Part shown: positions 5,055 through 51,346 of the stretch, in pieces
How positions within the stretch are numbered: the stretch's first letter is position 1
Layout: the number at the start of each line of letters is the position of its first letter
Assembly (NCBI GenBank): GCA_903885595.1
Contig: CAISJJ010000435.1
Span: forward strand, 1 to 51,744
Source: an uncultured Bacteroidales bacterium
GTDB lineage: Bacteria > Bacteroidota > Bacteroidia > Bacteroidales > FEN-979
Length of the DNA stretch: 51,744 bases
Reading direction: 5' to 3'
Program-made: the position numbers and the translations under genes
Notes under the pieces: model-generated
Seen by the model: only the letters and a program-made list of their open reading frames with translations
Databases searched by the model: none
What the model was told of the DNA's origin: nothing

Positions 5055-5096
5055 TACGAATGACGAATTACGAATTACGAATTACTATTTACGATT
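5055..5096. repeat. Tandem array, 7-bp unit (6 units)
   Basis: Six units in strict 7-bp phase: TACGAAT, GACGAAT, TACGAAT twice, TACTATT, TACGATT. It begins 9 bases upstream of the djlA-like start codon. TTACGAA/T words recur at 33337 and 36059, and the GACGAAT word recurs, reverse-complemented, at 14638. Confidence 0.9.
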
Positions 5097-5115
5097 TGTG
5101 TTTATAAAGAACATT

Positions 5116-5147
5116 TTCAAATCTTCAAATCTTCAAATCTTCAAATT
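5116..5147. repeat. Tandem array, 8-bp unit TTCAAATC (4 units)
   Basis: TTCAAATC three times plus TTCAAATT, directly abutting the stop codon of the saccharopine dehydrogenase gene (5148-5150). The reverse complement GATTTGAA is the core word at 14482 and 44914. Confidence 0.9.
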
Positions 5148-6578
5148 TCACGGCTCGATCATTTCGGAAACCGGTAGTCCAAATTCTTCGACCATTTTAA
5201 TTCCCATAGTCTCCAGTTGGTCAAGTACCGGATTGTAGATTTCAGGAATGACGGGAACGTGGACCCCTTTCACATTGATTTGTCCGCCTAAGATCATCTC
5301 AACTCCAATGGCTGCAGGCAGGGCAACTGTCCGGGCAATCGATGTATCAGTGGCCAGCGTTCCAAAATCAAGCATCCTGGAACGGATGACCTCCTTACGG
5401 CCGTCGGAATAGGCAGCCAGGAATGTGTGTTGCATCGCGACCATATCCCGCTCAGTTTGGCCAAGGCTCATTTTTTCAATCATCAGGTCAGAGGTAACCT
5501 CAAAAGTTGAATCCAATGCACGGTTCATGGGAGACTGATCGAACAATCCAAGCCAGTCCATAGCCTGAAGGGCATATGAATGTTCAGGTATCCCCAGAAA
5601 ATGAGCAACCATTAGCAGGATATTGTTTTCCGGTAAATCAGTTTCCGAAGAAGAAAGTCCTTTCCGGGTACCATATGACGTTTGCTCAGTGCCCTGCGTT
5701 TTGTGCGATGAGCCCTGTGCCAGCTGCCCGGCAATTTGACGGACCACCATGCCGGCATAAGTCATGTCTGACATATCGAATTTATCAGGAGAAATCAGGT
5801 TGAGTTGTTTCATAGCATCGAGTGTCTCACACCATCCGGGGTAGCGGAATGTTCCCCTGAACATGGTCATGGCTTCCGGAATGCCATAGATTTCCTTGTA
5901 CGCAAGGGAATCGCGGTTTGGATAGACTTCAAGGTTTCCAACATCCGGAAAATTAACCCTGAAAGGCTTTTTAAACAAGTCGCGGGTCGGTAACTCCACC
6001 ACCTTTCCATGCTGCAGATAAACGGCATCATTGTTACCGGCAAGTACCACTCCTTTCGGGCTCCATGAAAACTTATATTTAAAAGGGTTGTTCGCTGCTT
6101 CAGGTGCCGGAAGGGCGCCACAAATCGAATAAAACTCAAGAATCGCCCCTTCGCGTTCGTGCACATTGTCGATGATCCGCATGGCCGACATATGATCGAT
6201 TCCGGGATCGAGTCCCATTTCGTTCAACAGAATAATACCGGCCGCTTTTGCGGCAGCATCCAGTTCACGCATCTCCGGTTTCACGTAGGATGTGGTCACC
6301 ATATTCTTTTTGTGAGCAACGCAATACCTGGCTACCATTACATGAAAAACATATGGAAGCAGGCTCACGGTAAGATCATGGCCGGCTATCATCAGGCTGA
6401 GCGAGGTTTCATCATTTGCATCCCAGAACAATGATACACCATTTATGTTTCCGGCAATCATCTTCTCAGAACGATCAGGTGTATTAGAGGCAACGGTTAC
6501 GCGATAGCCCTTTGACAGTAAATACTGGATGATAGGTTTGGCAACGAGTCCGGAGCCGAGGATGAGGATTTTTTTCAT
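5148..6578 (-). CDS. Saccharopine dehydrogenase, glutamate-forming (SDH half of LKR/SDH)
   Basis: It oxidises saccharopine to glutamate and alpha-aminoadipate semialdehyde, the second step of lysine breakdown by the saccharopine route. The frame is open up to 6713, but I place the start at the ATG at 6578, giving MKKILILGSGLVAKPIIQYL, an NAD(P) Rossmann fold starting with GSGLVA. A longer start would run into the upstream LKR gene, whose stop ends 4 bases away. It is 476 residues long and resembles the C-terminal half of animal and plant AASS (VTTSYV, NEMGLDPGIDHM, APEAANNPFKYKFSWSP). A Ser/Thr/Gly-rich stretch near residues 285-310 looks like an inserted loop. An 8-bp array begins at its stop codon. 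Confidence 0.9.
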   Translation of the reverse strand: MKKILILGSGLVAKPIIQYLLSKGYRVTVASNTPDRSEKMIAGNINGVSLFWDANDETSLSLMIAGHDLTVSLLPYVFHVMVARYCVAHKKNMVTTSYVKPEMRELDAAAKAAGIILLNEMGLDPGIDHMSAMRIIDNVHEREGAILEFYSICGALPAPEAANNPFKYKFSWSPKGVVLAGNNDAVYLQHGKVVELPTRDLFKKPFRVNFPDVGNLEVYPNRDSLAYKEIYGIPEAMTMFRGTFRYPGWCETLDAMKQLNLISPDKFDMSDMTYAGMVVRQIAGQLAQGSSHKTQGTEQTSYGTRKGLSSSETDLPENNILLMVAHFLGIPEHSYALQAMDWLGLFDQSPMNRALDSTFEVTSDLMIEKMSLGQTERDMVAMQHTFLAAYSDGRKEVIRSRMLDFGTLATDTSIARTVALPAAIGVEMILGGQINVKGVHVPVIPEIYNPVLDQLETMGIKMVEEFGLPVSEMIEP

Positions 6579-6582
6579 TTCG

Positions 6583-7893
6583 TTACTTTTTGATAAATTC
6601 TTCAAGGTATTTATAATCCGGTGTAAGTTCACCTTTATGAAGAATAAGCGCTTTTTTAATTGGTTTAGGCAGGTCGAGATCGTCAAAGTGTTCTTCAAAA
6701 TCAGCATCAGCAATCGGTTTCACAAAGTTAACCAGGACATCAGCAAATCCATCCGATGAATCGCGTGGCAATTCAGCCGGCAGAATGTCCACCGCCATTA
6801 CGAGCATTCCATGACCTTTGTGCCCCATTGTGATGTCTTCGGTCTCCGGGTTATAGATATAGATGGGATCATCGATTTCTGTGGGCTTGAGGGTACATTC
6901 TACCGACCCCTCTACATCGCAGCTGATATCACCGATCACTTTAATCCTGGGATTTCCTTTGGCAAAAAGTTTTTTCAGATAATCTTTGGTTACGATCCGT
7001 GGATATCGCTTATCCCAATAAACACAGTTTATCAGCATGGAAAGATACGGAATGTATTTTTCGAACTTACTGCGGTAATTTTGGGGATTTGCATAGTAGT
7101 CGTGGAGCTCAAAAGGCTCGTCTTCAATATGTTCAACCAGATCCTCCTCTTTAAATATGACCTTATAGACAATGTTATCGGGTAGTTTTTTCCTCCTGTG
7201 CAAATCAAGCAATTTCTCCGGAGAGATTTCTTTAACAGGCAGTAAGCCGATGATTTCCTGAGCTCCCTGTGAAACATTACCATAGCCCGTAAATCCGATG
7301 ACAAAGGGTCGTAATTTGTGAGGTATTCCATTTTCGGCAATAAGTTGCCCTATAGCAGAAATATCATCCCTGGCTTCAAAGAGGGAATGGTAATGATGGG
7401 CCTGCTTAAGCCTGACAAGGTTTGAACTGTAACCTTCTTCTTTGAGCCTTAATCCCAAAGCCCACAGGGAATTGATCATTCCTGCCATGCCTGCATATCT
7501 GCCGAAAAAAATGAGTCGTTTTCCCTGCTCATCAACTACTTTTTCGTATTCGATCAGGTTACATTTCAATTCCATCATCCGGCGGAGCATATCCATGTTG
7601 TAAGGTTGGCCTTTAACGACATGGGCAAAGAAAACATAGGTCTTCTCCTGTTCGAAAAATGACTCTGGCATCTCTTTTACTCCGAAAATCACTGAGCACT
7701 TTTTAAGATCCTTTGCAATTTTTGCACCGGCATGAATGTATTCTTCATCTGTAAATACTCTTTTGTCGGAGGTTTGAACAATGATGTCCAGTTTCTTCTG
7801 TTTCACCAGTCGGGCCACATGCTTTGGGGTCAGGGGAGCCCTTCGTTCAAGTTTATACTTATCCTCGTGCCGGATGCCAATAAAATTGCTCAT
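6583..7893 (-). CDS. Lysine-ketoglutarate reductase-like protein (LKR half of LKR/SDH)
   Basis: A 436-residue protein with the AlaDH/PNT-type N-domain and Rossmann fold of the LKR half of alpha-aminoadipate semialdehyde synthase. It should condense lysine and 2-oxoglutarate to saccharopine. Recognisable blocks are IGIRHEDKYKLERRAPLTPK at the N-terminus, YVFFAHVVKGQPYNM, the GRYAGMAGMINSLWALGLRL stretch, and FTGYGNVSQGAQEI for the nucleotide site. It lies 4 bases upstream of the SDH gene, so the two halves that are fused in eukaryotes are separate, adjacent genes here, probably co-translated. A TACCTTTG box lies at 7916-7923, upstream on this strand. The family is secure; the lysine route is inferred from the pairing. 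Confidence 0.87.
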   Translation of the reverse strand: MSNFIGIRHEDKYKLERRAPLTPKHVARLVKQKKLDIIVQTSDKRVFTDEEYIHAGAKIAKDLKKCSVIFGVKEMPESFFEQEKTYVFFAHVVKGQPYNMDMLRRMMELKCNLIEYEKVVDEQGKRLIFFGRYAGMAGMINSLWALGLRLKEEGYSSNLVRLKQAHHYHSLFEARDDISAIGQLIAENGIPHKLRPFVIGFTGYGNVSQGAQEIIGLLPVKEISPEKLLDLHRRKKLPDNIVYKVIFKEEDLVEHIEDEPFELHDYYANPQNYRSKFEKYIPYLSMLINCVYWDKRYPRIVTKDYLKKLFAKGNPRIKVIGDISCDVEGSVECTLKPTEIDDPIYIYNPETEDITMGHKGHGMLVMAVDILPAELPRDSSDGFADVLVNFVKPIADADFEEHFDDLDLPKPIKKALILHKGELTPDYKYLEEFIKK

Positions 7894-7915
7894 ACATCTG
7901 TTAGTTTTGGAACAG

Positions 7916-7923
7916 CAAAGGTA
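7916..7923 (-). promoter_or_regulatory. -7 box for the LKR/SDH operon
   Basis: TACCTTTG on the minus strand matches TAnnTTTG, 22 bases upstream of the LKR start. It is back to back with the divergent box at 7947. Confidence 0.55.
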
Positions 7924-7946
7924 GGAAAAGGGATTGTTTTTTTCCT

Positions 7947-7954
7947 TATTTTTG
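7947..7954 (+). promoter_or_regulatory. -7 box for the DUF4476 gene
   Basis: TATTTTTG matches TAnnTTTG, 24 bases before the start at 7979. No -33 TTTG is seen at the usual distance. Confidence 0.5.
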
Positions 7955-7978
7955 ACTCCAAATTAAATCATTCGCCTT

Positions 7979-8731
7979 ATGAAAACAACCTTTCGTTTTT
8001 ACCTGGTACTGATGTTGGTTTTTCTGTACCAAAGCTCGTTAGCACAGTTCGCCAATGTAATTGTGTTTGCACCCAACGGCGAAAAATTCACGCTGTCAGT
8101 CGGTGGTACAATCAGGAACAGTGAGCCGGAAGCCAGGGTTGAAGCCGATGTCCCGGGTGGGCCGAGCTTTAAAATCAAAGTTACTTTCAATGACCCTTCG
8201 ATCAAGGAAATCAGTAAAATGGTTTTTAACAAACCAAATCACACTTTCTACTTTAAAGTTGATAAAAATCAAAAGGGAGCCTATGTCCTCGAATCCACAT
8301 CATCTGAATGGTCCAATGAGACCGGCGCAAAGAAGGATACACCACCGCCTCCTCCTCCGCCAATAGATCAGGAATCAAAAACCGCCAAAGAAACAGTGAA
8401 AAATGAACCTGCAAAGGTTTCAGGAGAAAAAGGTTGTACTGATCCAATGTCACAGCCTGATTTTCTGGCTTCGTTAATATCTGTTTCTGCACCACCCTAT
8501 GATCCCCCAAAACTTTCAGCAGCGAAAAAACTTGCTACCGAACATTGCCTGACCACAACACAGGTGATAGAGGTGTTGTATGTATTTGATTACGAATCAA
8601 CCAGGCTGAATTTTGCCAAATTTGCCTATGATCATACATTTGACCCCACCAATTACAGTGATGTTTCAGAAGCGCTGAACAGCGCTAAATCCAAGAAGGA
8701 CCTTGAAGCCTACATCAACTCTAAAAAATAG
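7979..8731 (+). CDS. Exported DUF4476 domain protein
   Basis: This 250-residue protein has a signal peptide (1-22, ending SSLAQ). A beta-rich N-terminal domain (about 23-110) is followed by a proline run and charged linker (about 118-150). The C-terminal DUF4476 domain (about 155-245) contains the typical FDYESTRLNFAKFAYD stretch. This architecture is common in Bacteroidota exported proteins of unknown function; the conserved domain is probably a small helical bundle. It is probably periplasmic or surface exposed. It is monocistronic, transcribed divergently from the LKR gene. I cannot assign a function. Confidence 0.8.
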   Translation: MKTTFRFYLVLMLVFLYQSSLAQFANVIVFAPNGEKFTLSVGGTIRNSEPEARVEADVPGGPSFKIKVTFNDPSIKEISKMVFNKPNHTFYFKVDKNQKGAYVLESTSSEWSNETGAKKDTPPPPPPPIDQESKTAKETVKNEPAKVSGEKGCTDPMSQPDFLASLISVSAPPYDPPKLSAAKKLATEHCLTTTQVIEVLYVFDYESTRLNFAKFAYDHTFDPTNYSDVSEALNSAKSKKDLEAYINSKK

Positions 8732-8789
8732 TATATTGAGAGAAATACCTTTACACCGGAGTTAATTTACTTCGGTTGACGATCATTTT

Positions 8790-9485: not shown

Positions 9486-9526
9486 ATTTCCAGCCTGAAT
9501 TTCACAGTTATAAGCGTTTTTTTTTG

Positions 9527-9534
9527 TAATTTTG
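9527..9534 (+). promoter_or_regulatory. -7 box for ppdK
   Basis: TAATTTTG matches TAnnTTTG, 26 bases before the ppdK start, just after the end of mtgA. Confidence 0.55.
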
Positions 9535-9560
9535 CCGCTTCAATTTTTTCACTAACCTAA

Positions 9561-14480: not shown

Positions 14481-14481
14481 T

Positions 14482-14585
14482 GATTTGAGAATTTGAAGAT
14501 TTGGAGATTTGGAGATTTGAAGAATTGGAGATTAGAAGATTTGGAGATGCGAAGGTGTGAAGATGTAAAGATGTAAAGATGTGAG
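14482..14585. repeat. Tandem array, 8-bp unit GATTTGRA (13 units)
   Basis: Thirteen units in exact 8-bp phase. They begin with GATTTGAG, AATTTGAA, GATTTGGA and drift to GATGTAAA and GATGTGAG. The array starts 1 base from the first codon of the HMA gene. The core word is the reverse complement of the one at 5116 and recurs at 44914. Confidence 0.92.
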
Positions 14586-32028: not shown

Positions 32029-32076
32029 GGCAAACAAGTAAACCGGTGAACAGGTGAACTGATGTACCGGTGAACG
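32029..32076. repeat. Tandem array, 8-bp unit GGTGAACA (6 units)
   Basis: Six 8-bp units in phase: GGCAAACA, AGTAAACC, GGTGAACA, GGTGAACT, GATGTACC, GGTGAACG. It lies just upstream of tpiA. The same words occur at 38366 and, inverted, at 39178. Confidence 0.85.
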
Positions 32077-32113
32077 GGAAAAAAGTTTACCACCAGCCAA
32101 TCCATAACGTTTT

Positions 32114-32233
32114 ATTCAACTGTTCATTGTTCAGCAGTTCATTGTCAGGGACCGTGCTTTTAATTTTTGTTAATGATAGTTTCCAAAACCTTTTCTTTAT
32201 TTAAAATATTCACCAGCTCACCATTTCACTGGC
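32114..32233. repeat. Inverted, weaker 8-bp words between tpiA and the permease gene
   Basis: On the minus strand, 32114-32148 reads as a degenerate 7/8-bp run (ACTGCTGA, ACAATGA, ACAGTTGA), and 32210-32233 as three 8-bp words (GCCAGTGA, AATGGTGA, GCTGGTGA). Both resemble the GGTGAACA family but face the opposite way to 32029-32076. The bases between them show no structure I can name. Confidence 0.6.
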
Positions 32234-33328: not shown

Positions 33329-33336
33329 CAGGGAAT

Positions 33337-33364
33337 TTACGATTTACGATTTACGATATACGAT
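33337..33364. repeat. Tandem array, 7-bp unit TTACGAT (4 units), with inverted partner
   Basis: Three TTACGAT units plus ATACGAT, 8 bases upstream of the permease start. Positions 33351-33366 are perfectly complementary (16 bp) to 33435-33450 near the end of the BT_3928-like gene, so the gap can fold into a long hairpin with a 68-base loop. Confidence 0.88.
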
Positions 33365-33434
33365 TTAAAGGAAATATCGATCAAACCATCATTTTTTTTC
33401 AATTCTGCCATTGGCTGACTTTTTTATAAATCTG

Positions 33435-33455
33435 AAATCGTATATCGTAAATCGA
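33435..33455. repeat. Inverted copy of the TTACGAT array
   Basis: Reads TTACGAT and ATACGAT on the minus strand. It begins about 9 bases after the stop codon of the BT_3928-like gene and forms the second arm of the hairpin with 33345-33366. Confidence 0.8.
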
Positions 33456-36029: not shown

Positions 36030-36058
36030 CGGGATTTTGCTAACTTTGAAGACCAATT

Positions 36059-36170
36059 TTACGATTTACGATTTACGATTTACGATTTACGATTTACGAT
36101 TTACGATTTACGATTTACGATTTACGAGTGAAAAGTGAAAACTGAAAAATGACGAGTGAAAAGTGAGAAA
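36059..36170. repeat. Tandem array, 7-bp unit, word changes in phase (16 units)
   Basis: Nine TTACGAT units, then TTACGAG, TGAAAAG, TGAAAAC, TGAAAAA, TGACGAG, TGAAAAG and TGAGAAA, all in uninterrupted 7-bp phase. It starts 29 bases after the folP stop. The words match loci at 5055, 14638 and 33337. Confidence 0.95.
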
Positions 36171-36197: not shown

Positions 36198-36279
36198 TTT
36201 TGATCTTTGATCTGTCGTTTTGATCTTTGAATTTTGATCTTTGAGTTTTGAATTGTGGTTTTGATCTTTGAGTTTTGAA
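36198..36279. repeat. Tandem array, units TTTTGAT / CTTTGAG, abutting the cdaA start
   Basis: Twelve units, mostly 7 bp with two of 6 bp, alternating TTTTGAT/TTTTGAA with CTTTGAG/CTTTGAA. It ends 7 bases before the cdaA ATG. Every unit except the two 6-bp ones contains TTTG, the -33 box sequence of Bacteroidota promoters. Confidence 0.9.
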
Positions 36280-36286
36280 TTTGCTT

Positions 36287-37069
36287 ATGCTTTTAGTCGG
36301 CCTTTTCTCCCTTCGTATCGTCGATATTATCGACATCATCCTGTTTGCCATTCTTCTCTATGAGATTTACAACCTGGTAAAAGGAACAGCGGCTATCCGG
36401 ATTTTTATCGGAATTATTGCCGTGTACATTATTTGGAAGGTTGTCAAAGCCTTGCAAATGCAACTGCTTACGGAGATCCTGGGCCAGTTCATCAGCGTAG
36501 GCGTTATAGCACTGATCGTAGTTTTCCAGCCTGAAATACGGCAATTCCTTTTGATGGTCGGGAATACCAGGATCATTAAAAACCAGCGGAAACGATTTCT
36601 TTTCTGGCGCTTTAAAATAAACAACCCCGTCAATCTGAATATCGATAAGATTGTGAAGGCCTGCCAGAAAATGGCTGAAACCAAAACGGGGGCATTGATC
36701 GTAATCACACAGCAAAATGAACTTGATCAATACATTGCAACGGGTCAGGCTATTGATTCAAAGATTTCAGAAGTTCTGCTTGAAACGATTTTTTTTAAAA
36801 ACAGTCCGCTGCACGATGGGGCGGTAATTATAAACGGCGAATATATACGGGCAGCCCGCTGCATCCTCCCCGTTTCAAATAAAGCGACCATTCCGCCCTT
36901 TTACGGATTGCGCCATCGCGCTGCTGTAGGGATTACAGAGAAGTCGGATGCTATTGCCATTATCGTATCGGAAGAACGAGGTGATATCGCATATAGCTAT
37001 GAAGGCAACCTGCACCAGCATATTTCGCCGGCAAACCTGTTTACGGCACTGGAAAGTTTGTTTAAATAA
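36287..37069 (+). CDS. cdaA: Diadenylate cyclase (c-di-AMP synthase)
   Basis: It makes the second messenger c-di-AMP from two ATP. I choose the ATG at 36287 rather than the TTG at 36275. The 260 residues have three N-terminal membrane helices (about 8-28, 34-52 and 66-82) and a cytoplasmic DAC domain. The catalytic motifs are LHDGAVI (DGA 177-179) and YGLRHRAAVG (RHR 209-211). The order folP then cdaA recurs in this phylum as far as I recall. A TTTG-rich array occupies the region where promoter and ribosome-binding site should lie, so expression may depend on array length. Confidence 0.94.
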   Translation: MLLVGLFSLRIVDIIDIILFAILLYEIYNLVKGTAAIRIFIGIIAVYIIWKVVKALQMQLLTEILGQFISVGVIALIVVFQPEIRQFLLMVGNTRIIKNQRKRFLFWRFKINNPVNLNIDKIVKACQKMAETKTGALIVITQQNELDQYIATGQAIDSKISEVLLETIFFKNSPLHDGAVIINGEYIRAARCILPVSNKATIPPFYGLRHRAAVGITEKSDAIAIIVSEERGDIAYSYEGNLHQHISPANLFTALESLFK

Positions 37070-38413: not shown

Positions 38414-38500
38414 AGTACCCGGGAAGACTGGCAGATCATCAAACTTTCGGACAAATGCACAATTTGAATAACTAATACTGATAAAAAAAATCTAAATTTC

Positions 38501-38572
38501 CACATTCCCACATTCCCACATTCCCACATTCCCACATTCCCAAATTTTCAAATTTTCAAATTTTCAAATTTT
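38501..38572. repeat. Tandem array, 8-bp units CACATTCC then CAAATTTT (9 units)
   Basis: Five CACATTCC units switch to four CAAATTTT units without loss of phase. The array enters the ruvX coding region: the stop codon (38556-38558) and the last five codons lie inside it. Confidence 0.95.
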
Positions 38573-38972
38573 CCATATATGACTGCAAAATAATGGTCGC
38601 GCTCACCGTATCAACCAACGCTTTATCCTGCCGGTCTTTTTTCTTCAGTCCCGCATCACGGATTGCACGCGTGGCCATCAGGGAGGTAAACCGTTCATCC
38701 ATCCGCTTTACCGGGATCCCCGGAAAGGCCGCTGACAGCTTTTTAACAAATGGCTCAATAAAAATGGCGGATTCTGAAGGCGTGTTGTTCATTTGCTTAG
38801 GTTCTCCTACCACAAAGCACTCTACCTCGTTCTTGCTGATGTAATCTTTTAAAAACTCCAAAACATCCATCGACCGAACAGTCGTGAGGCCGGTAGCGAT
38901 GATCTTGAGTTCATCCGTCACCGCAAGCCCTGTTCTCTTTTGTCCGTAATCAATCGCAACAATCCTCCCCAT
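38556..38972 (-). CDS. ruvX: YqgF/RuvX-type pre-16S rRNA nuclease or Holliday-junction resolvase-like protein
   Basis: A 138-residue RNase H-fold protein, thought to finish 16S rRNA 5'-end processing and originally proposed as a Holliday-junction resolvase. It begins with RIVAIDYGQKRTGLAVTDE, the first catalytic-aspartate strand, followed by VVGEPKQMNNTPS, RMDERFTS and a late DTVSA aspartate. Its last residues (ENLKI) and stop codon are encoded by units of the 8-bp array 38501-38572, so the native C-terminus may have been replaced. A TACCTTTG box lies upstream. Family assignment is secure; of the two roles, rRNA processing is the better supported in other bacteria. Confidence 0.92.
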   Translation of the reverse strand: MGRIVAIDYGQKRTGLAVTDELKIIATGLTTVRSMDVLEFLKDYISKNEVECFVVGEPKQMNNTPSESAIFIEPFVKKLSAAFPGIPVKRMDERFTSLMATRAIRDAGLKKKDRQDKALVDTVSATIILQSYMENLKI

Positions 38973-39033: not shown

Positions 39034-39103
39034 ACACGGGACACGGGACATGGGACACGGGACACGGGATGCGGGACACGGGACACGGGACACGGGACAC
39101 GGG
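39034..39103. repeat. Tandem array, 7-bp GC-rich unit ACACGGG (10 units)
   Basis: Ten units in strict 7-bp phase: eight ACACGGG, one ACATGGG, one ATGCGGG. It lies between the divergent ruvX and dapD genes, and is the only clearly GC-rich array in the window. Confidence 0.95.
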
Positions 39104-39177
39104 ACGAAAGTCGGGCAACTAAGGACGGGTTACAAAATGGTCCCGTAATGTTTACATCACCTTGATCTTTTAACGCT

Positions 39178-39209
39178 ACCTGTTCACCTGATTCCTTGTT
39201 TGCCCGTTC
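39178..39209. repeat. Tandem array, 8-bp unit (4 units), inverted GGTGAACA family
   Basis: On the minus strand it reads, in 8-bp phase, GATGAACG, GGCAAACA, AGGAATCA, GGTGAACA. Two of these words are identical to units at 32029-32052. It lies just upstream of the dapD start codon. Confidence 0.78.
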
Positions 39210-39227
39210 ATCATTGATATCAAAAAC

Positions 39228-40043
39228 ATGACTGACCTCAAACGAATTATAGAATCTGCCTGGGACCACAGGGAACTATTAAAACAAGCTGAAACCAGTG
39301 AGGCCATTTGTGAAGTTGTCGACCAGCTTGATAAGGGACTGATCAGAGTCGCCTCGATGGATAACGGGCAATGGAAAACACATGAATGGATTAAGAAAGC
39401 GGTGATCCTCTATTTTCCTATTCATAAGATGGAGTTGATTGAGATCGGTCCGTTTCAGTTCTATGATAAAATCCCGTTAAAAACCGGTTGGGATAAACTG
39501 GGGGTTCGTGTGGTACCTCATGCCCTTGCCCGTTATGGCGCCTTTATCGCCGAGGGTGTGGTTATGATGCCTTCCTACATTAATATTGGCGCTTATATTG
39601 ATTCAGGAACCATGGTCGATACCTGGGCGACGGTTGGATCTTGTGCACAGATTGGCAAGCATTGCCATCTTAGCGGCGGGGTAGGCATCGGGGGAGTGCT
39701 CGAACCGGTTCAGGCCGCGCCGGTCATTATCGAGGATAATTGTTTCCTTGGATCACGGTGCATTGTGGTTGAAGGAGTTCGTGTAGGCACCGAAGCCGTT
39801 TTGGGCGCAAATGTTGTATTAACCGGCTCAACAAAAATTATTGATGTTTCCGGTGAAAAGCCGATGGAATATAAAGGTTATGTCCCTCCCCGATCGGTTG
39901 TGATTCCTGGTACACTTCCTAAAACATTTCCTGCCGGCATTTACCAGGTTCCCTGCGCGCTGATCATTGGACAAAGGAAAGCATCCACCGACTTGAAAAC
40001 CTCTCTAAACCAGGCGTTACGTGAATTTGATGTCGCCGTGTAG
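39228..40043 (+). CDS. dapD: Tetrahydrodipicolinate N-succinyltransferase
   Basis: It transfers succinyl from succinyl-CoA to tetrahydrodipicolinate in the lysine/meso-diaminopimelate pathway. The 271 residues have an N-terminal helical domain (about 1-95) and a left-handed parallel beta-helix of hexapeptide repeats (about 100-240). The latter includes MMPSYINIGAYIDSGTMVDT, GKHCHLSGGVGIGGVLEP and NCFLGSRCIVVEGVRVG. Length and motifs match DapD, not the acetyl-type DapH. The stop codon is followed at once by the start of the glycosyltransferase gene. Confidence 0.96.
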   Translation: MTDLKRIIESAWDHRELLKQAETSEAICEVVDQLDKGLIRVASMDNGQWKTHEWIKKAVILYFPIHKMELIEIGPFQFYDKIPLKTGWDKLGVRVVPHALARYGAFIAEGVVMMPSYINIGAYIDSGTMVDTWATVGSCAQIGKHCHLSGGVGIGGVLEPVQAAPVIIEDNCFLGSRCIVVEGVRVGTEAVLGANVVLTGSTKIIDVSGEKPMEYKGYVPPRSVVIPGTLPKTFPAGIYQVPCALIIGQRKASTDLKTSLNQALREFDVAV

Positions 40044-44907: not shown

Positions 44908-44913
44908 GGTGGG

Positions 44914-44953
44914 GATTTGAGGATGTGAGGATTTGAAAATGTGAAGATTAGGA
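44914..44953. repeat. Tandem array, 8-bp unit GATTTGAG (5 units)
   Basis: Five units in phase: GATTTGAG, GATGTGAG, GATTTGAA, AATGTGAA, GATTAGGA. It starts 6 bases after the DUF4249 stop codon. The words match those at 14482. Confidence 0.85.
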
Positions 44954-45149: not shown

Positions 45150-45347
45150 CACCTCATCCTCCAGCTCCTTCTCCTCAAGGAGAAGGAGGGACGGTGTTAA
45201 CTATGTATTAATCGGTATTTTAATGTTTTGATGGATTTTGTTTTTATCTAAAATAAGCGGTTGATGAAAATTCTTGTAATAATGGTAATCTATTGATCGA
45301 TAGCGCCTCCCCTTCTCCTAGAGGAGAATGGGCAGGGGGTTGAGGTG
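45150..45347. repeat. MITE-like element with about 44-bp terminal inverted repeats
   Basis: The left end (45150-45193) starts CACCTCA and contains the perfect 11-bp palindrome CTCCTTCTCCT/AGGAGAAGGAG. The right end (45305-45347) is its inverted copy, also ending in CACCTCA when reversed and carrying CCCCTTCTCCT. By eye the ends agree at roughly four of five positions. The 111 bases between them show no frame. No transposase lies here. Confidence 0.72.
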
Positions 45348-45423
45348 ATAATGATATACCCCTTGGAGTCACATATCAATACCGAAAAATATCAACTTGT
45401 TTAAAGGAGATAAGCAGTTTCAT

Positions 45424-45463
45424 CAATTCAACAATTCAACAATTCAACAATTCAACAATTCAA
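45424..45463. repeat. Tandem array, 8-bp unit CAATTCAA (5 units)
   Basis: Five identical 8-bp units, ending 36 bases before the -7 box of the histidine kinase gene, so unit number could change promoter context. Confidence 0.93.
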
Positions 45464-45499
45464 ATTGCCCGGCGCCGACCCAAAATATAAATAATCGCC

Positions 45500-45670: not shown

Positions 45671-47827
45671 ATGATAAACCGCTTCCTGATTTTGATCACG
45701 GTTCTTTTTGCAACGCTTGCAGGCCATCCCCAGCCAAAGCAATCAGCAGCCGACAGTTTAGCCCGCCTCCTGGCGTCATCAGTCAGGGAGGACAGCAATA
45801 GAGTGAAACTGCTGATTGAATGTTACCGAATTGTTTTACCAACCAATTCCGACAGCGCCTTGAAGATAAGCCAGCAGATTTCGACTATCTCGGCCAGGAT
45901 CGGTTTCAGTTATGGCCTTATAAAGGGACTCAATTGTATGGCTGTATGCTATTGGTACCAGAATAATCCCGGCCAGGCCATCCCCACATTTCACAAGGCT
46001 CTTGCACGGGCAGCGAAGGATAATAACATCGATCTGGAAACAATGGTTTTAAGCAACCTTGGAATGTATTATGGAGTGCTCGGGGTTTCGGACAGCGCCG
46101 AAAAATATCAAAAATTGGCTGTCAACAGAGGGAAACAACTTGACGACAAGAGCCGGTATGCCAAGGCGGTTTCTGACCTTGCCACGGTTTATCTGAACAA
46201 AGGCAATTACATCGGGGCCATTCAAAATACGCTTGAGGCGCAAAAGATATATGAAGCCAAACACCTCAATACCGATCTGGCTAACTCTTATATCCGGCTT
46301 GGCATGATCTATTTTAACCTCAACGATTTTGAAAAATCAATCGGCGCTTACCGTCTTGCGCTTAAAATCATTAAACCGCTTGGCGACATCAAGATCAACA
46401 TGGCTGTTTTTATTAACATGGGGCTTTTATATTCTCAGGTAAAAGGGGATCAGGATTCGGCCAAAATATTTCTGACGAAGGCACTGCATCTGTCAGAGGA
46501 AAACAAGGATGAGCTGACCCATATAAATGCATTGGTCAACCTCGGTAATATCGCCTGGACCCAAAAGGATCTCAAAAAGGCGCTTGAATATTTCACCGAT
46601 GCTTTTAAATCGCCTCTGATTCCTTACCGGAATCAACAGCGAGCTGCTTTACTGGTGAACCTCGGAGGGGTTTATCTCGAACTCGGTGATCTTGAAAAAG
46701 CAGAGAAATTTACTAAAAACGGTTTGCAACTGGCCCGCGAACAAAAATTTGCGACCTTTGAAAAAGCAGCATGCAAGACCATGGGTGAAATTGAGGCAAA
46801 GAAGGGGAACTACAAAGCAGCATTTAACTATTATAAAACGTTCTCATCCCTGCTGGATACTCTTGGGAATGAATCGGTTAAGCATAAGGTGGCCGAAGTG
46901 GTTTTCAGGAATGAACTAAAGCAAAAGGAAAATGAGAACATCCTGTTGCAAAAGAACAATGAGATCAAGCAGAAGACGATACTAATCCAGGGCTTTTACA
47001 TTATCACAGCCAGTGGGATTCTTTTACTTGTCGTACTTCTGCTGGTCGTTAACAAGAGGAACAGCCGCAGAAAGGAAGCCATGAACCAGCTCCTTGATCT
47101 GAAAAACAAAGAATTGCATGAACTGATCCTGACGAAAGACAAATTTTTCTCCATCATTTCGCACGATTTACGTGGCCCTTTCAATGGGTTTTTGGGATTG
47201 TCAAAATTACTTGCCGAAGATTTGGATGATTTGACTCAGGATGAGATTCAAAGGATTGCAGTGAGCATGAGAGACTCCTCGACCAATCTCTTCCGGTTAC
47301 TCGAAAACCTGCTGGAGTGGGCGCGGATGCAACAGGGCGGTATCATATTTAATCCTGATGCAACCCGGCTGATCACCATAATTGCTGAAACCATGCGCCC
47401 GGTGAAGGATGCGGCAAACAAAAAGGGTATTGATATCAGTATTGAAATCCAGGATGATCTCGAAGTTTTTGCCGATGCCTATATGCTTGCCTCAACCATC
47501 CGTAACCTGGCCTCCAATGCATTGAAATTCACCCACAATGGCGGGAAGGTCACCATTTCGGCAAAGGCTGTCCCCGGCAATTCTGTAGAAATCACAGTGA
47601 AGGACACCGGTATCGGAATGACCAGCGCGATGGTTGATGATTTATTCCGGCTCGATGTTCAAACCAAACGCAGAGGCACTGATGATGAACCCAGCAGTGG
47701 TTTGGGATTGCTCCTGTGCAAAGACTTCGTTGAAAAGCATGGCGGCAAAATATGGGCAGAGAGCGAGGAGGGGAAGGGAAGTACTTTCTGTTTTACCTTA
47801 CCGGCCGCCCCACCCCGAAATCAGTAA
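45671..47827 (+). CDS. TPR-containing membrane sensor histidine kinase
   Basis: A 718-residue kinase. It has a signal peptide (1-19), a periplasmic TPR solenoid (about 60-400, at least seven repeats), a coiled coil, one membrane helix (439-460), a dimerisation domain with the phospho-acceptor H498 in FFSIISHDLRGPF, and an HATPase_c domain with NLASNALKF, VKDTGIGM and SGLGLLLCKDFVEKHGG. It should sense an envelope signal and phosphorylate a response regulator. No receiver-domain gene lies beside it; the next gene is a membrane-bound LuxR-type protein without a receiver, so the partner is elsewhere or the pair works differently. Confidence 0.93.
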   Translation: MINRFLILITVLFATLAGHPQPKQSAADSLARLLASSVREDSNRVKLLIECYRIVLPTNSDSALKISQQISTISARIGFSYGLIKGLNCMAVCYWYQNNPGQAIPTFHKALARAAKDNNIDLETMVLSNLGMYYGVLGVSDSAEKYQKLAVNRGKQLDDKSRYAKAVSDLATVYLNKGNYIGAIQNTLEAQKIYEAKHLNTDLANSYIRLGMIYFNLNDFEKSIGAYRLALKIIKPLGDIKINMAVFINMGLLYSQVKGDQDSAKIFLTKALHLSEENKDELTHINALVNLGNIAWTQKDLKKALEYFTDAFKSPLIPYRNQQRAALLVNLGGVYLELGDLEKAEKFTKNGLQLAREQKFATFEKAACKTMGEIEAKKGNYKAAFNYYKTFSSLLDTLGNESVKHKVAEVVFRNELKQKENENILLQKNNEIKQKTILIQGFYIITASGILLLVVLLLVVNKRNSRRKEAMNQLLDLKNKELHELILTKDKFFSIISHDLRGPFNGFLGLSKLLAEDLDDLTQDEIQRIAVSMRDSSTNLFRLLENLLEWARMQQGGIIFNPDATRLITIIAETMRPVKDAANKKGIDISIEIQDDLEVFADAYMLASTIRNLASNALKFTHNGGKVTISAKAVPGNSVEITVKDTGIGMTSAMVDDLFRLDVQTKRRGTDDEPSSGLGLLLCKDFVEKHGGKIWAESEEGKGSTFCFTLPAAPPRNQ

Positions 47828-47864
47828 TTGTTGCTTTTCGGAGCAGTCTCAAATGTAAATTACC

Positions 47865-47872
47865 TATATTTG
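47865..47872 (+). promoter_or_regulatory. -7 box for the LuxR-type regulator gene
   Basis: TATATTTG matches TAnnTTTG, 45 bases before the start at 47918, so this gene can be transcribed apart from the kinase. Confidence 0.5.
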
Positions 47873-47917
47873 CCCCATACATCTTGTTCATTATTGACTG
47901 CGGATGTTTGATCGCGG

Positions 47918-48964
47918 ATGACAAACAGAACCCTGATTGTATCTATTTTACTATACCTGGTCTCCCTGTTTGGACTTCAGGCGCAGATAACCGACTCAAC
48001 CCGCATCTGGAACAAGGCGCTGAAAGGTAAACTTTCAGTGAACGACAGGGTAAGGTACCTGAATAAGGTTGCCGCATGCTACTGGTACGTGAATACCGAC
48101 AGCGCCCGTTTCCTCAGTGAGCGTTATATTGAAATCGGACTGCGCGACAGTTCTGTTCGTTACATGACCCTGGCCGGCGTGCTCAAGGATTCCCTCGTCA
48201 ACAGGGCTGGCCGTGACAATATGGATGAACTGGAGATGAAATACAAATCCTCCCTGCAGGATCAACAGCTTAAACTTTTGCAAAGTGAGAAAGAAAATGA
48301 ACGCCGCCGGTCGGTGATCATTTTCATCTCCTCCACCTTCCTGCTTGTAATTTTAATGCTCGTTACCATCATGTTTTGGCTCAGGCAGAAACGGCTGCGC
48401 ATTATCAACCGGAGTGCAATAACTTCAAAGAAACTGGCCGAAAATGAGGTACTTCTCAAAGAAGTTGAAATGGAAAAATTGGGGCTTCAGAAACTGCTGG
48501 ATGAACAGGAGATTGCCCGTCTTAATTCAGACCTACACAAAAAACAGCAGGATATGGTATTCAAGTCGCTGATGAAGGCCAATACGAATAATGTGTTAAA
48601 AACAGTCACCGAAAGCCTCTCCCGTTTTTCTATTCATCTTAGCCGGAAAAAGGAACAGGAAGAATTCAACCAGATGATATTTCAGCTCGGCAAAGGATTA
48701 ACCTCATCGCCGCTCGATGATTTTGAACAGTTGTTCAAGGATTTACATCCTTCGTTTTACAGCAACCTCTGCGCCGCCTGCACAGGTTTGAGCCAGAACG
48801 ATCTCAAGCTATGTGCCTTCATTCGTTTAAATCTTTCATCCAAAGATATTGCCAGCATCATAAACCTTTCCCTGTCATCCATTGAAACCGGTCGCTCGCG
48901 TCTCCGGAAAAAACTCGGCCTCGACGCCGGCGACAGCCTCACGAGCTTTCTGATGAATTTCTGA
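47918..48964 (+). CDS. Membrane-bound LuxR-type (HTH) regulator with short periplasmic TPR part
   Basis: A 348-residue protein. It has a signal peptide (1-22), a short periplasmic part (about 25-115), one membrane helix (133-154), a long coiled coil (about 165-215) and a C-terminal helix-turn-helix (about 288-345) with LSSKDIASIINLSLSSIETGRSRLRKKLG. Relatives in Bacteroidota carry several periplasmic TPRs. Here only what looks like the first repeat (CYWYVNTDSARFLSERYIEI) and the last (YMTLAGVLKDSLV) remain, as if the middle repeats were deleted in frame. It probably regulates transcription from the membrane. The start at 47918 gives a good signal peptide. Confidence 0.82.
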   Translation: MTNRTLIVSILLYLVSLFGLQAQITDSTRIWNKALKGKLSVNDRVRYLNKVAACYWYVNTDSARFLSERYIEIGLRDSSVRYMTLAGVLKDSLVNRAGRDNMDELEMKYKSSLQDQQLKLLQSEKENERRRSVIIFISSTFLLVILMLVTIMFWLRQKRLRIINRSAITSKKLAENEVLLKEVEMEKLGLQKLLDEQEIARLNSDLHKKQQDMVFKSLMKANTNNVLKTVTESLSRFSIHLSRKKEQEEFNQMIFQLGKGLTSSPLDDFEQLFKDLHPSFYSNLCAACTGLSQNDLKLCAFIRLNLSSKDIASIINLSLSSIETGRSRLRKKLGLDAGDSLTSFLMNF

Positions 48965-49013
48965 TCTCAGATTGAACCGATACCGGCAATAAAGGCGATT
49001 GCTTCACTGATGT

Positions 49014-49094
49014 TCACAACCCTCCGGTCTCTATTCCATCGTAGTCAATGCCAACGGGAAATCGACGATACTAAAGCAGGTGGTGAACCGATAA
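49014..49094 (+). pseudogene. Relic of a type IX secretion C-terminal sorting domain
   Basis: The frame reads SQPSGLYSIVVNANGKSTIL, then KQVVNR and a stop. This resembles the last strands of T9SS type A sorting domains, which typically have (L)PSGxYxxxV, a G, and end KxxVK/R. A one-base frameshift at about 49020 joins it to FTDVHN in the preceding frame, and a stop lies just upstream. It is probably the 3' debris of a lost secreted-protein gene. Short length makes this tentative. Confidence 0.4.
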
Positions 49095-49149
49095 AAAAAC
49101 GGGAATTTATCGGGAGTGACTAACCTACACTCCAACTATTTGATATTGT

Positions 49150-49157
49150 TATTTTTG
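49150..49157 (+). promoter_or_regulatory. -7 box upstream of the truncated lipoprotein gene
   Basis: TATTTTTG matches TAnnTTTG, but it lies 157 bases before the start, so the link is weak. Confidence 0.3.
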
Positions 49158-49314
49158 CATTTTTTTGCAACAATTGTACAGGTTTTTTCTGGCTGATTTT
49201 GTTGACAGGATGAACTTCCTTAACTATTTTCGCCGCCGGTTGACCATTTCCGCCTCCATGAAAAGCCGGCAATAAAAAAATAGTAAAAAAACCATCCCAT
49301 TCAAAAACACCAAA

Positions 49315-50079
49315 ATGAAAACAAGAATTGCTTCGATCATGCCATTTATCGCGATAACTCTTCTGGCTGTCGCACTATCATCGTGCCGCAGCGCCGGACC
49401 AAATAACATGGTCCGCGACCGGAACGGATATATCAACGCCATTTCCGATTCGTGGAAAAACCAGATGCTGCTTAACATTGTAAAGCTCCGCTACGCCGAT
49501 GCGCCGGTTTTTCTCGACATTGCCTCCATTGTCAACTCCTACGAGACCAGGGGAGAGGTGAGTGCCGGGGGGATGTGGGAGCAAGTCGGAGCCGGACTTA
49601 TGCCTGCCATCGGGGCTACTGCCACTTTTTCCGACAAACCTACCGTAAGCTATTCCCCGTTGCAGGGGAGCAAATTTGCCATGAGCATGATGAATCCGAT
49701 CGGCCCGTCGACCGTGATGGGGCTGATATATGCCGGATATCCTGTGGATATGGTCTTCCGGCTGATGCTAAGCTCGGTAAATGGGATCAGTAACAGTTAC
49801 AGCGGGCCCATGCGAAAAAAGGAAGCCTCACCCGACTTTTACAACCTGCTTCAATATCTGAAAAAAATCCAGGATGCCAATGGTTTATCGGTCGGCCAGA
49901 ACAATAAAACAGAGGGGGCGATAGATTTCTACATGAAGGATAACATTGATACCAGCCTGGTTCGTAATGTTGCAGAGATTAAAAAGATCCAAGACCATGA
50001 AAACCAAACAAAAAACGTCGCACCATCTAACATTGATTGCTCTCTTTTCCGGTGTTCTCTTTCTGCTTGCAGGCTGTAA
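49315..50079 (+). pseudogene. 3'-truncated lipoprotein gene running into the next gene
   Basis: The product has a lipoprotein signal (lipobox ALSSC, Cys at 24), then SWKNQMLLNIVKLRYADAPV, DIASIVNSYE and SGPxR-like segments. I recall these from longer (about 400-residue or more) uncharacterised proteins in other bacteria. After about residue 226 the frame runs through the 5' end of the hydrolase gene in the wrong frame, giving a tail (ENQTKNVAPSNID and on) that is just the hydrolase signal peptide misread, and stops at 50079. The hydrolase starts at 49997, so the overlap is 83 bases. A deletion that removed the 3' half is the simplest reading. If the gene is intact after all, it is a 254-residue lipoprotein of unknown function. 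Confidence 0.6.
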
Positions 50080-51253
50080 AAAAACGGACCCGACTCCCGT
50101 CCCACAGCCAGTTGTCACAAGTGAGTACATCAAAACCTATGACCTGCAAAAACTCAACCAGATCCTCAACGGGGAACTGGAGTTTTTTTTAGCATATTCC
50201 ACCATGCATTTCGCCGATTTCCAGGGTCAGTTTGCCACGCCGAAATATCCGGTAAAACTCTACCGGGTCACCTATCCCTCGGTGGTTCCTGAACTGGGTA
50301 TTCCCACAATTGCATCAGGGCTGGTGGCGATTCCCGAAACCGGGCTTGATTCCATGCCTGTCATGTCATACCAGCACGGAACTGTGTTTGAAAAAGACTA
50401 TTGCCCTTCTGTTCCCGACTCCTCAATGGAAACGAAGCTGATGATCGCGCAATTTGCCTCCCAGGGCTACATTGTGATCGGGGCCGATTATTTCGGTCTG
50501 GGTGTTTCCGACCTGCCGAATTCATATCTGATCGAACGCAGTTCGGAGCAGGCTTGCGTTGACATGCTGTACGCGGCTCAAAAGGTTCTGAAGGATCAGA
50601 ATATTAAACAGGGGTCTTTGTTTCTGCATGGCTGGTCGCAGGGAGGGTACACGAACATGGCTTTTCTCCGGACACTGGAAACCCTGAATGTTCCGGTTAC
50701 GGCTGCATCCACGGCATCTGCCCCGGCCGACGCTTTTAGCGTGATTGACCGCTGGATAAACAACCCTCAGCCTGGTGATGCCCCTTTCCTGCCTGCCTGC
50801 CTTTCGAATTTTCTGTTCTCAATGGAATATTATAACAATTTACCCGGACTTGCCGCATCAGCCATCAATGCGGATTATTACCAGGCAGCTAAGGACTTTT
50901 ACCAGTGGAACATGGACTTTCCTGCATTTTTCGGGAAAACGACCCCCATGGTCAGGGAATACCTGAAACCTGAGTTCATGACGACCGGAAACCTTGGAAA
51001 TACGACCTTCTGGCGCATACTTGAGAACTACCAGGTATACCGCTGGCGCTGCCACACGCCGCTCAGGATGTACTACGGCGGCGCTGATGAAGTCGTTCCC
51101 GTATATCTCGCCACGCTCCCTGCTGCCTACCAGCAGGAAATCGGCTGCACCAATATAGTTGCTTTACCGGCAGGCCTCAATGCAGATCACAGGGCTACTT
51201 ACATCTATTCACTCATTCATGCAAAGCCCTGGTTCGACGGATTTTTGAAATAA
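49997..51253 (+). CDS. Secreted lipoprotein alpha/beta hydrolase (lipase/esterase-like)
   Basis: A 418-residue lipoprotein. I choose the ATG at 49997 (MKTKQKTSHHLTLI), which gives a proper signal and lipobox (LLAGC, Cys 27); the upstream part of the frame lies inside the truncated gene. The catalytic triad is visible: the nucleophile S214 in HGWSQGG, the acid D364 in YGGADEVVP, and H398 in NADHRA. The large insertion between strands (about 245-345) forms a lid-like cap. It resembles secretory-lipase or tannase-like esterases. The substrate is unknown; the enzyme is probably on the envelope surface. A 7-bp array follows 37 bases after the stop. Confidence 0.85.
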   Translation: MKTKQKTSHHLTLIALFSGVLFLLAGCKKTDPTPVPQPVVTSEYIKTYDLQKLNQILNGELEFFLAYSTMHFADFQGQFATPKYPVKLYRVTYPSVVPELGIPTIASGLVAIPETGLDSMPVMSYQHGTVFEKDYCPSVPDSSMETKLMIAQFASQGYIVIGADYFGLGVSDLPNSYLIERSSEQACVDMLYAAQKVLKDQNIKQGSLFLHGWSQGGYTNMAFLRTLETLNVPVTAASTASAPADAFSVIDRWINNPQPGDAPFLPACLSNFLFSMEYYNNLPGLAASAINADYYQAAKDFYQWNMDFPAFFGKTTPMVREYLKPEFMTTGNLGNTTFWRILENYQVYRWRCHTPLRMYYGGADEVVPVYLATLPAAYQQEIGCTNIVALPAGLNADHRATYIYSLIHAKPWFDGFLK

Positions 51254-51290
51254 AATCTGATCAAGAGGAATTTCTGGGCGGGGGAAGGAA

Positions 51291-51346
51291 ATTTCGGATT
51301 TCAGATTTCGGATTTCAGATTTCGGATTTCGGATTTCAGATTTCGG
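51291..51346. repeat. Tandem array, 7-bp units ATTTCGG / ATTTCAG (8 units)
   Basis: Eight units in strict 7-bp phase with two alternating words (CGG, CAG, CGG, CAG, CGG, CGG, CAG, CGG). It lies between the hydrolase gene and the HTH/Fic relic. Confidence 0.95.

What the first reader, a model, noticed from the sequence alone, without database searches (positions are those of the whole stretch)
5055..51346. A dispersed system of 7- and 8-bp intergenic 'word' arrays
At least 15 intergenic places carry tandem arrays whose unit is only 7 or 8 bp: 5055, 5116, 14482, 14638, 32029, 32210, 33337, 33435, 36059, 36198, 38366, 38501, 39034, 39178, 44914, 45424 and 51291. Unlike ordinary microsatellites, the word can change inside one array with the phase kept (36059-36170: TTACGAT to TGAAAAG to TGACGAG; 38501-38572: CACATTCC to CAAATTTT). 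The same words recur kilobases apart and on both strands: TGACGAG at 14.6 and 36.1 kb, TTACGAT at 33.3 and 36.1 kb, GATTTGAA at 5.1, 14.5 and 44.9 kb. Slippage explains copy number but not in-phase word switching or dispersal. A templated or copy-based process (array-to-array conversion, or telomerase-like repeat synthesis at breaks) is a possible cause. No candidate enzyme is encoded in the window.
Basis: partly seen in the sequence, partly recalled or inferred. Interest (0 to 1): 0.85.

Follow-up and report, generated by a model that had tools for sequence, protein, structure and literature searches.

The report
Bursting short repeat words between genes
The gaps between genes in this uncultured bacterium hold many tandem arrays of 7- or 8-letter DNA words, and related species have spread different favourite words through their genomes, which suggests that short arrays are copied from place to place as well as stretched where they stand.

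Summary
Of 17 named places, 15 beat all 2,000 shuffled controls. In 1.13 Mb of this genome 219 of 237 arrays of period 3-12 have period 7 or 8. 196 period-7 loci use 42 of 1,170 possible words; none occurs with a distinct reversed form.

New facts: (1) among 19 same-genus genomes a word may have dozens to hundreds of matches in one and few or none in its neighbour; (2) orthologous gaps mostly carry different words, or no array, in sister species; (3) multi-word phrases tend to keep one order across loci; (4) in this genome array pairs 60-150 bp apart are often inverted copies; (5) at 96-97% identity, arrays differ by whole words.

Best explanation: local slippage in whole words, plus replication-based copying of word blocks elsewhere, without a dedicated enzyme. 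In-phase word switching alone does not exclude slippage. The telomerase-like idea found no support: the one reverse-transcriptase match is a group II intron fragment, and three array-bearing relatives have none. Heptameric repeats are known in bacteria; this is a new variant.

The parts
5056..5097 (+). period-7 array, TTACGAA/TGACGAA/TTTACGA words
5113..5146 (.). period-8 array TTCAAATC
14483..14582 (.). period-8 compound array GATTTGAA/GATTTGGA/GATGTGAA/GATGTAAA
14637..14703 (-). period-7 compound array GTCATTC/GTCACTC on the plus strand (TGACGAR on the minus strand)
32029..32078 (.). decayed period-8 array, GGTGAACN words
   Evidence: score 17, 0 of 2000 shuffles reach it; below the threshold used
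32210..32233 (.). possible decayed period-8 array
   Evidence: weak, P 0.0125
33335..33367 (+). period-7 array TTTACGA, left arm of an inverted pair
33428..33454 (-). period-7 array (ATCGTAA), right arm of the inverted pair; 60-bp spacer with no match elsewhere in the own-genome sample
36058..36169 (+). period-7 compound array TTTACGA x10 then GTGAAAA/TGACGAG
36199..36282 (.). period-7 compound array TTTTGAT/CTTTGAT/TTTTGAA
38366..38411 (.). decayed period-8 array, GTGGACAA-like words
   Evidence: score 12, 0 of 2000 shuffles reach it
38496..38573 (.). period-8 compound array CACATTCC to CAAATTTT
39034..39105 (.). period-7 array ACACGGG in the ruvX-dapD gap; the orthologous gap holds other words or no array in sister species
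39178..39215 (.). possible decayed period-8 array (GTTCACCT/GTTTGCCC)
   Evidence: weak, P 0.028
44910..44948 (.). period-8 array, TTTGAGGA/TGTGAGGA words
45419..45463 (.). period-8 array TTCAACAA
51291..51350 (.). period-7 array ATTTCGG/ATTTCAG

Best explanation
The arrays are neutral or weakly deleterious DNA that grows and spreads by replication errors, with no dedicated enzyme. Step 1 (shown in gaps of one genome pair): within a gap, arrays gain and lose whole words of 7 or 8 bp, as slippage or unequal recombination would do; base changes inside a unit then spread, which gives in-phase word switching. Step 2 (inferred from pattern): a nascent strand that has just copied an array switches template at a microhomology of one or two words. 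Switching to the opposite strand nearby leaves an inverted copy after a short spacer; switching to a distant site plants a block of ordered words in another gap. The commonest word is then the likeliest source for the next copy, so words rise in genome-specific bursts and are later replaced. Step 3 (inferred): selection mainly removes copies from coding and start-proximal DNA. Why 7 and 8 are the allowed lengths is not explained by any of this.
For: Period restriction: 219 of 237 arrays are period 7 or 8. Word bursts, counted as matches (several can fall in one array): TTTACGA x3 has 338, 156, 130, 58 (own), 52, 51 and 49 in seven of 19 genus members, 1 to 5 in five and 0 in seven. GGGTRAAC x3: 91, 31, 29, 4, 1, and 0 in 14 of 19. 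GTGACGC x3: present in 9 of 19, highest 34. Tree neighbours differ in TTTACGA: own 58 and G008 4, G018 51 and G002 4, G011 52 and G005 0. Locus turnover: in the same orthologous gap 7 of 89 genome pairs share words; for different gaps 23 of 688 comparisons. Phrase sharing: 66 pairs of period-7 arrays share a mixed 28-mer against 19-42 with word order reversed; for period 8 and 32-mers, 24 against 6-12. Order: T-words 5' of TGAC-words in 17 of 20, 2 opposite, 1 tie; TTTTCC 5' of TTGTC in 8 of 9 in G006/G010. Inverted pairs at 60-150 bp in the own genome: 9 of 22 where 1.5 are expected, direct 1. Whole-word differences of 14, 14, 7, 8, 42 and net 24 bp between G006 and G010 at 96-97% identity. 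A 25-bp non-periodic tail beside a GAATATY array recurs exactly on a second contig. Placement after the upstream stop: 51 of 115 arrays of tandem gaps lie in the first quarter, 15 in the last.
Against: No array-free gap was caught being filled with both junctions readable, so template switching is inferred. Word sharing in orthologous gaps is somewhat above background (odds ratio 2.5, P 0.07), so some arrays are probably inherited. The order and phrase tests are not independent between loci and have no exact P value. Polarity is weaker in other Bacteroidota (5 against 2 of 8, 1 tie). The inverted excess is not general: in the own genome it is absent at 8-60 bp (5 inverted, 12 direct of 49) and 150-500 bp (2 and 3 of 20), and in other Bacteroidota loci direct pairs prevail (60-150 bp: 4 inverted, 10 direct; 150-500 bp: 4 and 22); relatives give too few pairs (1 and 1 of 4). 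Octamer arrays show an orientation to transcription (26 against 10), which neutral spread does not predict. The 25-bp tail lies near contig ends in both places, so the two contigs may be neighbours. All 60 longer stretches of the own sample come from contigs listed for TTTACGA, so that word is over-counted; the 20 contigs picked by number (104,783 bp) still give 11 period-7 and 4 period-8 arrays against 4 others.
Confidence: 0.5

Rival explanations
1. Pure local slippage. Each array arose on its own from a chance doublet; the same words recur because the polymerase or repair machinery of the lineage favours some words and the lengths 7 and 8.
For: Whole-word differences in the closest pair; heptamers are the commonest long simple repeats in most genomes studied by Mrazek 2007, as cited in PMC4679880; little word sharing with other phyla apart from the search word, as expected if preferences differ by lineage.
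Against: Bursts of one word in one genome while its sister uses another; preferred multi-word order at separate loci; inverted neighbours in the own genome. Self-structure of the words is not unusual: mean rank 0.53 of 1 for octamers and mixed ranks among the listed heptamers.
Confidence: 0.2
2. Templated synthesis by a dedicated enzyme, telomerase-like or DRT10-like, or rolling-circle copying of tiny circles cut out of arrays, which plants one word at breaks across the genome.
For: Predicts genome-specific word bursts, a fixed unit length and arrays in gaps that lack them in sisters. DRT10 shows that bacteria have RTs that make tandem-repeat DNA from a short RNA template (PMC12632851: abstract, passages and section 8 read).
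Against: The own genome holds one RVT_1 match, a fragment that scores best as group II intron RT. G010, G011 and G013 have no match and still carry arrays. 42 heptamers and 34 octamers in one genome sample would need many templates. In the passages read nothing says that DRT10 cDNA enters the chromosome. Circles and word-bearing RNAs were not tested.
Confidence: 0.15
3. Functional elements: arrays and inverted pairs act as 3'-end hairpins, terminators or protein-binding arrays, kept by selection and reshuffled within a vocabulary.
For: Convergent gaps carry arrays more often (23 of 79) than divergent ones (16 of 91); excess just after stop codons; octamer orientation bias 26 to 10; inverted pairs could fold as hairpins; the ruvX-dapD gap holds arrays in 11 of 16 genus members.
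Against: Heptamer arrays show no orientation to transcription (37 against 34); sister species lack the array or mostly use another word in the same gap; dozens of words in one genome sample.
Confidence: 0.12

Closest known systems
Long simple sequence repeats with heptamer excess in prokaryotes (Mrazek et al. 2007, known here only as cited in PMC4679880 and PMC4692102)
   Same: Unit of 5-11 bp, heptamers commonest in most genomes
   Different: Here many words per genome, compound arrays with preferred word order, word bursts within a genus and inverted pairs; I did not see these described in the parts read
TAACTGA repeats of Beggiatoaceae, cyanobacteria and some Bacteroidetes (MacGregor 2015, PMC4679880)
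   Same: Dispersed intergenic heptamer arrays, patchy across phyla; in M. aeruginosa TAACTGA repeats are said to be often mixed with other heptamers
   Different: In BOGUAY one favoured word, mostly forward and next to start codons; here many words, no heptamer orientation, fewer near starts
GGGAATC and GGGGAYT heptamer repeats of Xanthomonas and Nostoc (PMC4692102, passages read)
   Same: Dispersed heptamers with degenerate positions, over-represented in non-coding DNA, 186 and 183 in two Xanthomonas genomes
   Different: Those are G-rich and quadruplex-forming; the commonest word here (TTTACGA) is not
DRT10 / telomerase repeat synthesis (PMC12632851)
   Same: Tandem repeats of short fixed unit whose sequence follows the template
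   Different: 9-nt repeats for Eco3DRT10, protein-primed cDNA; no such enzyme found here
REP/BIME elements with RAYT transposase (recalled)
   Same: Extragenic, dispersed, partly inverted pairs near 3' ends (recalled)
   Different: No conserved palindrome seen; 8 of 14 spacers of inverted pairs match nothing else in the sample

Membership tests
Long simple sequence repeats (heptamer class) | Tandem unit of 5-11 bp, longer than chance in that genome | tested here: met
Long simple sequence repeats (heptamer class) | Copy number changes in whole units between close relatives | tested here: met
   differences 14, 14, 7, 8, 42 and net 24 bp in two gaps of one pair; the third gap is rebuilt in blocks
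TAACTGA-type regulatory repeats | Forward orientation just upstream of start codons | tested here: not met
   heptamers 37 against 34 in tandem gaps; 15 of 115 arrays (both periods) in the start-proximal quarter
Telomerase-like / DRT10 system | UG17-type RT with SLATT protein and a templating ncRNA | tested here: not met
   the sole RVT_1 match, a 148-aa fragment below the curated cut-off, scores best as group II intron RT (E 5e-66; RT_UG17 4e-23); SLATT and ncRNA not searched; genome 94.5% complete
REP/BIME with RAYT | Conserved palindromic core shared by copies | tested here: not met
   8 of 14 spacers match nothing elsewhere in the sample, the other 6 match array words, one weak 40-bp hit, or a 25-bp tail at one other place; three Y1_Tnp proteins exist in the genome, no link tested
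Transposon or MITE | Shared internal sequence between terminal inverted repeats | tested here: not met
   as above; sample of 1.13 Mb, not the whole genome
Transposon or MITE | Target-site duplication | tested here: inconclusive
   one search prints 12 bases of each flank; none obvious, no formal test

The most novel reading that the evidence does not exclude
Bacteria possess an active trans-copying process for very short tandem DNA: a word of 7 or 8 bp, or an ordered block of words, is multiplied over many intergenic sites in one lineage, replaced by another word in the next, and left as inverted pairs where it folds back. The unit length of 7-8 is set by the copying machine. This would be either a replication template-switch mode not recognised before in bacteria, or a circle- or RNA-templated one.
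Probability: 0.3. Interest if true: 0.85.

Novelty: new variant of a known kind. Interest (0 to 1): 0.62.

Why it matters
Why heptamers dominate long bacterial repeats was raised in 2007 (as cited in PMC4679880) and I found no answer in the papers seen. A genus in which species have their own burst words, with array-free sister gaps and ordered phrases, makes the question testable: one can ask where a new array comes from, what its junctions look like and which polymerase or repair gene sets the length. It also suggests that contigs of such genomes may break at arrays and that their intergenic DNA turns over by block copying as well as by point change.

Tried and rejected
Universal word preference: rejected. 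Own vocabulary is hardly shared with other phyla (besides the search word: Chloroflexi 1 of 26 words, Verrucomicrobia 1 of 11, Armatimonadetes 0 of 9, Desulfo/delta 0 of 6, Acidobacteria 0 of 2; four further groups gave no other word), against 11 of 57 in other Bacteroidota, where 2 of 57 match when reversed, one of them a reverse-symmetric word. A cyanobacterial genome prefers the reversed class (326 reversed against 36 forward matches). Self-structure of words: no consistent trend (the heptamer mean could not be computed). Transposon reading of inverted pairs: no general core. Reverse transcriptase: no candidate. The control column (9 per period) looks like an artefact of masked N runs and was replaced. 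Random stretches of G006 and G010 did not overlap outside the dapD region, so another homologous region was placed and compared; its first 20 kb holds no array of period 7 or 8. The tail of gap B was badly aligned and was measured again between anchors. Rows dropped: G010 (near-identical to G006), gaps over 1,500 bp or overlapping, 168 placements came from 222 arrays, the rest not between two called ORFs, pairs less than 3 kb apart on one stretch; the G006 stretches orthologous to G010 ones; G009 had no fetched stretch.
Full report
What was checked. The window is contig 435 of a 6.02 Mb, 547-contig draft genome. Tandem Repeats Finder and a lag analysis confirm arrays of period 7 and 8 in the gaps between genes. 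One genus member is very probably the Lake Pavin metagenome bin JAPLDF01 (Bacteroidetes), because contig lengths coincide (G018:C74 and JAPLDF010000070.1, both 95,388 bases; inference).

Genome-wide picture. I read 1,125,896 bases of the genome (19,279 of them masked): the window, 20 contigs picked by number and 60 stretches of contigs listed for TTTACGATTTACGA. There are 148 arrays of period 7, 71 of period 8 and 18 of all other periods from 3 to 12. In the 20 contigs picked by number (104,783 bp) there are 11 of period 7, 4 of period 8 and 4 others. Perfect runs at 196 period-7 loci use 42 words out of 1,170 possible strand-neutral words, and 82 period-8 loci use 34 of 4,140. No word is present together with a distinct reversed form, which has the same composition; words equal to their own reversal, such as AAAAATT, cannot be tested. 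In a smaller sample 17 of 38 period-7 loci of genus relatives, but 3 of 24 period-8 loci, use words of the own vocabulary; reversed, none.

Position. Convergent gaps hold one or more arrays in 23 of 79, tandem gaps in 92 of 382 and divergent gaps in 16 of 91. In tandem gaps 51 of 115 arrays lie in the first quarter after the upstream stop and 15 in the last. Heptamers show no strand relation to transcription (37 and 34); octamers do (26 and 10) (genes are ORFs called by a simple script). This looks like tolerance rather than a promoter role, but the octamer bias is unexplained.

Sister species. Nineteen genomes of the genus were searched; counts are matches, of which several can fall in one array. 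TTTACGA x3 has 338, 156, 130, 58 (own), 52, 51 and 49 matches in seven, 1 to 5 in five and none in seven. GGGTRAAC x3 is in 5 of 19 (91, 31, 29, 4, 1) and absent from the own genome; in one of these (G012) its reversed control also occurs (13 against 29). GTGACGC x3 is in 9 of 19. On a FastTree tree of nine proteins close neighbours differ in TTTACGA (own 58 and G008 4; G018 51 and G002 4; G011 52 and G005 0). Five of the six genomes without TTTACGA that were sampled (15-20 kb each) carry 15 to 40 arrays per 100 kb with other words, the sixth (G005) 5.3. Words therefore rise and fall by genome.

Orthologous gaps. Around dapD the gene order is largely conserved in the genus. The gap between ruvX (window 38556-38972, RuvX by Pfam) and dapD (39228-40043; name from recall of the sequence) holds ACACGGG in the window, CGTGACA with TTTGTTAC in G016, TTTACGA with TTTTGCA in G001, ATTTCGG in G012, G004 and G018, TGTTACCC in G017 and TGACGAR with TGACAAR in G014. 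Seven of 18 relatives printed show no array, while a promoter-like stretch beside ruvX stays recognisable. Across twelve gaps, 7 of 89 genome pairs with arrays in the same gap share words, against 23 of 688 comparisons of different gaps (P 0.07); three of the seven are the ATTTCGG trio. Some gaps are hot (11 of 16) and some cold (0 of 16, 0 of 15).

Signs of copying. Arrays at least 3 kb apart or on different stretches share multi-word strings more often than when word order is reversed in one partner, and the excess grows with length: for period 7, 472 against 305-377 at 16 bases, 218 against 124-172 at 21, 115 against 40-75 at 25, 66 against 19-42 at 28; for period 8, 166 against 103-143 at 18, 71 against 38-58 at 24, 42 against 19-34 at 28, 24 against 6-12 at 32. 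Word order is polar: TTTACGA-type words lie 5' of TGAC-type words in 17 of 20 compound arrays, 2 opposite and 1 tie. In other Bacteroidota the count is 5 against 2 of 8, with 1 tie. In the pair G006/G010, which speaks another dialect, TTTTCC-type words lie 5' of TTGTC-type words in 8 of 9; two further word pairs tested there gave 3 against 2 and 2 against 0.

Inverted pairs. In the own genome array pairs 60-150 bp apart share words in inverted orientation in 9 of 22 cases where 1.5 are expected, and in direct orientation once; at 8-60 bp the counts are 5 and 12 of 49, at 150-500 bp 2 and 3 of 20. Of 14 inverted pairs within 150 bp, 11 have the GA-rich arm first, 1 the opposite and 2 cannot tell; 8 of 14 spacers match nothing else in the sample. 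One spacer holds an exact 25-bp tail that recurs beside the same word on another contig, though both copies lie near contig ends. The window's own pair is 33335-33367 and 33428-33454. In non-Bacteroidota loci, selected for TTTACGA, inverted sharing is in excess at 8-60 bp (16 of 41, 5.0 expected) and less so at 60-150 bp (11 of 45, 5.5 expected). In other Bacteroidota loci it is not: 4 inverted and 10 direct at 60-150 bp.

Local change. G006 and G010 are 96-97% identical over 10.8, 20.0 and 20.0 kb. The second stretch holds no array of period 7 or 8 in either. In two gaps with arrays the lengths differ by 14, 14, 7, 8, 42 and a net 24 bases, all whole words. The ruvX-dapD gap differs by two extra copies of a 72-79 bp unit in G010 and an octamer array found only in G006.

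Mechanism. Slippage or unequal exchange in whole words is shown as far as two gaps of one pair can show it. Copying to other places is inferred from bursts, phrases, polarity and inversions. The simplest machine for both is replication with template switching at word-length microhomology; short templated inverted duplications by foldback are reported in yeast (PMC11724301, start of abstract in the listing). The fixed lengths 7 and 8 remain unexplained. The suggestion that 7 nt reflects polymerase contact is attributed to Mrazek 2007 in PMC4679880 (section 3 read).

Telomerase-like reading. DRT10 makes tandem repeats from a short RNA template (PMC12632851: abstract, passages and section 8 read). 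The only RVT_1 match in the own genome is a contig-end fragment that scores best as group II intron RT, below the curated cut-off as a fragment would be. G010, G011 and G013 have none and carry arrays; 17 of the 25 genomes searched have one. Draft completeness (94.5 to 97%) leaves a small door open.

Known work. Papers seen: PMC4679880 (abstract and sections 3, 8, 10 and 23), PMC4692102 (passages), PMC12632851 (abstract, passages, section 8). Eight accepted literature searches (one search found nothing) listed no paper that, by title and start of abstract, describes word bursts within a genus or ordered multi-word arrays; the lists were cut at 10 to 30 papers, and most subscription papers are not in the library. 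Heptamer arrays as such are known, so I class this as a new variant of a known kind.

Noticed in passing
L195, L196, L197, L198, L204, L205, L206, L207: DNA after the orthologue of window 36275-37069 (Pfam DAC and CdaA_N): In 8 of 14 relatives printed, the 3' end of this gene or the DNA just after it carries period-9 arrays (AATGCAGGC-like, which would read Asn-Ala-Gly in frame), absent in the window; period 9 keeps frame, so the same growth process may act in coding DNA.
   Followed up: no
L129, L141, L166, L186 (Armatimonadetes); L176, L188 (Actinomycetes bin): TTTACGA arrays form inverted pairs with spacers of 38-120 bp and the opposite polarity (CGTAAAT arm first) to the pairs of the window's genome.
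   Followed up: partly
genome G336 (Geitlerinema, locus L082): The reversed form of the TKACNAD word class is far commoner than the forward one (326 against 36 matches), so the vocabulary differs by lineage.
   Followed up: no
IMG/VR contigs L313-L351: TTTACGA x3 is in 30 viral-contig stretches, its reversed control in 6, GTGACGC x3 in 3; whether these are true phage DNA or host flanks was not checked.
   Followed up: no
L089, positions 510-2417: A Subsaximicrobium contig repeats the four-word phrase AATCCCAAATCCCTAATTCCTAATCCCCAAT exactly at three places within 1.6 kb, with near variants at two more.
   Followed up: no
L043:17419-17671: A period-11 array of about 250 bp, the longest array outside periods 7 and 8 in the list.
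   Followed up: no
window 45150-45345: Two palindrome-like stretches (CTCCTTCTCCTCAAGGAGAAGGAG and CCCTTCTCCTAGAGGAGAATGG) in the same gap as the TTCAACAA array, possibly a separate dispersed repeat.
   Followed up: no
L096 (Chloroflexaceae), positions 220-3239: Seven inverted pairs of heptamer arrays within about 3 kb, six of them with loops of 9-29 bp.
   Followed up: no
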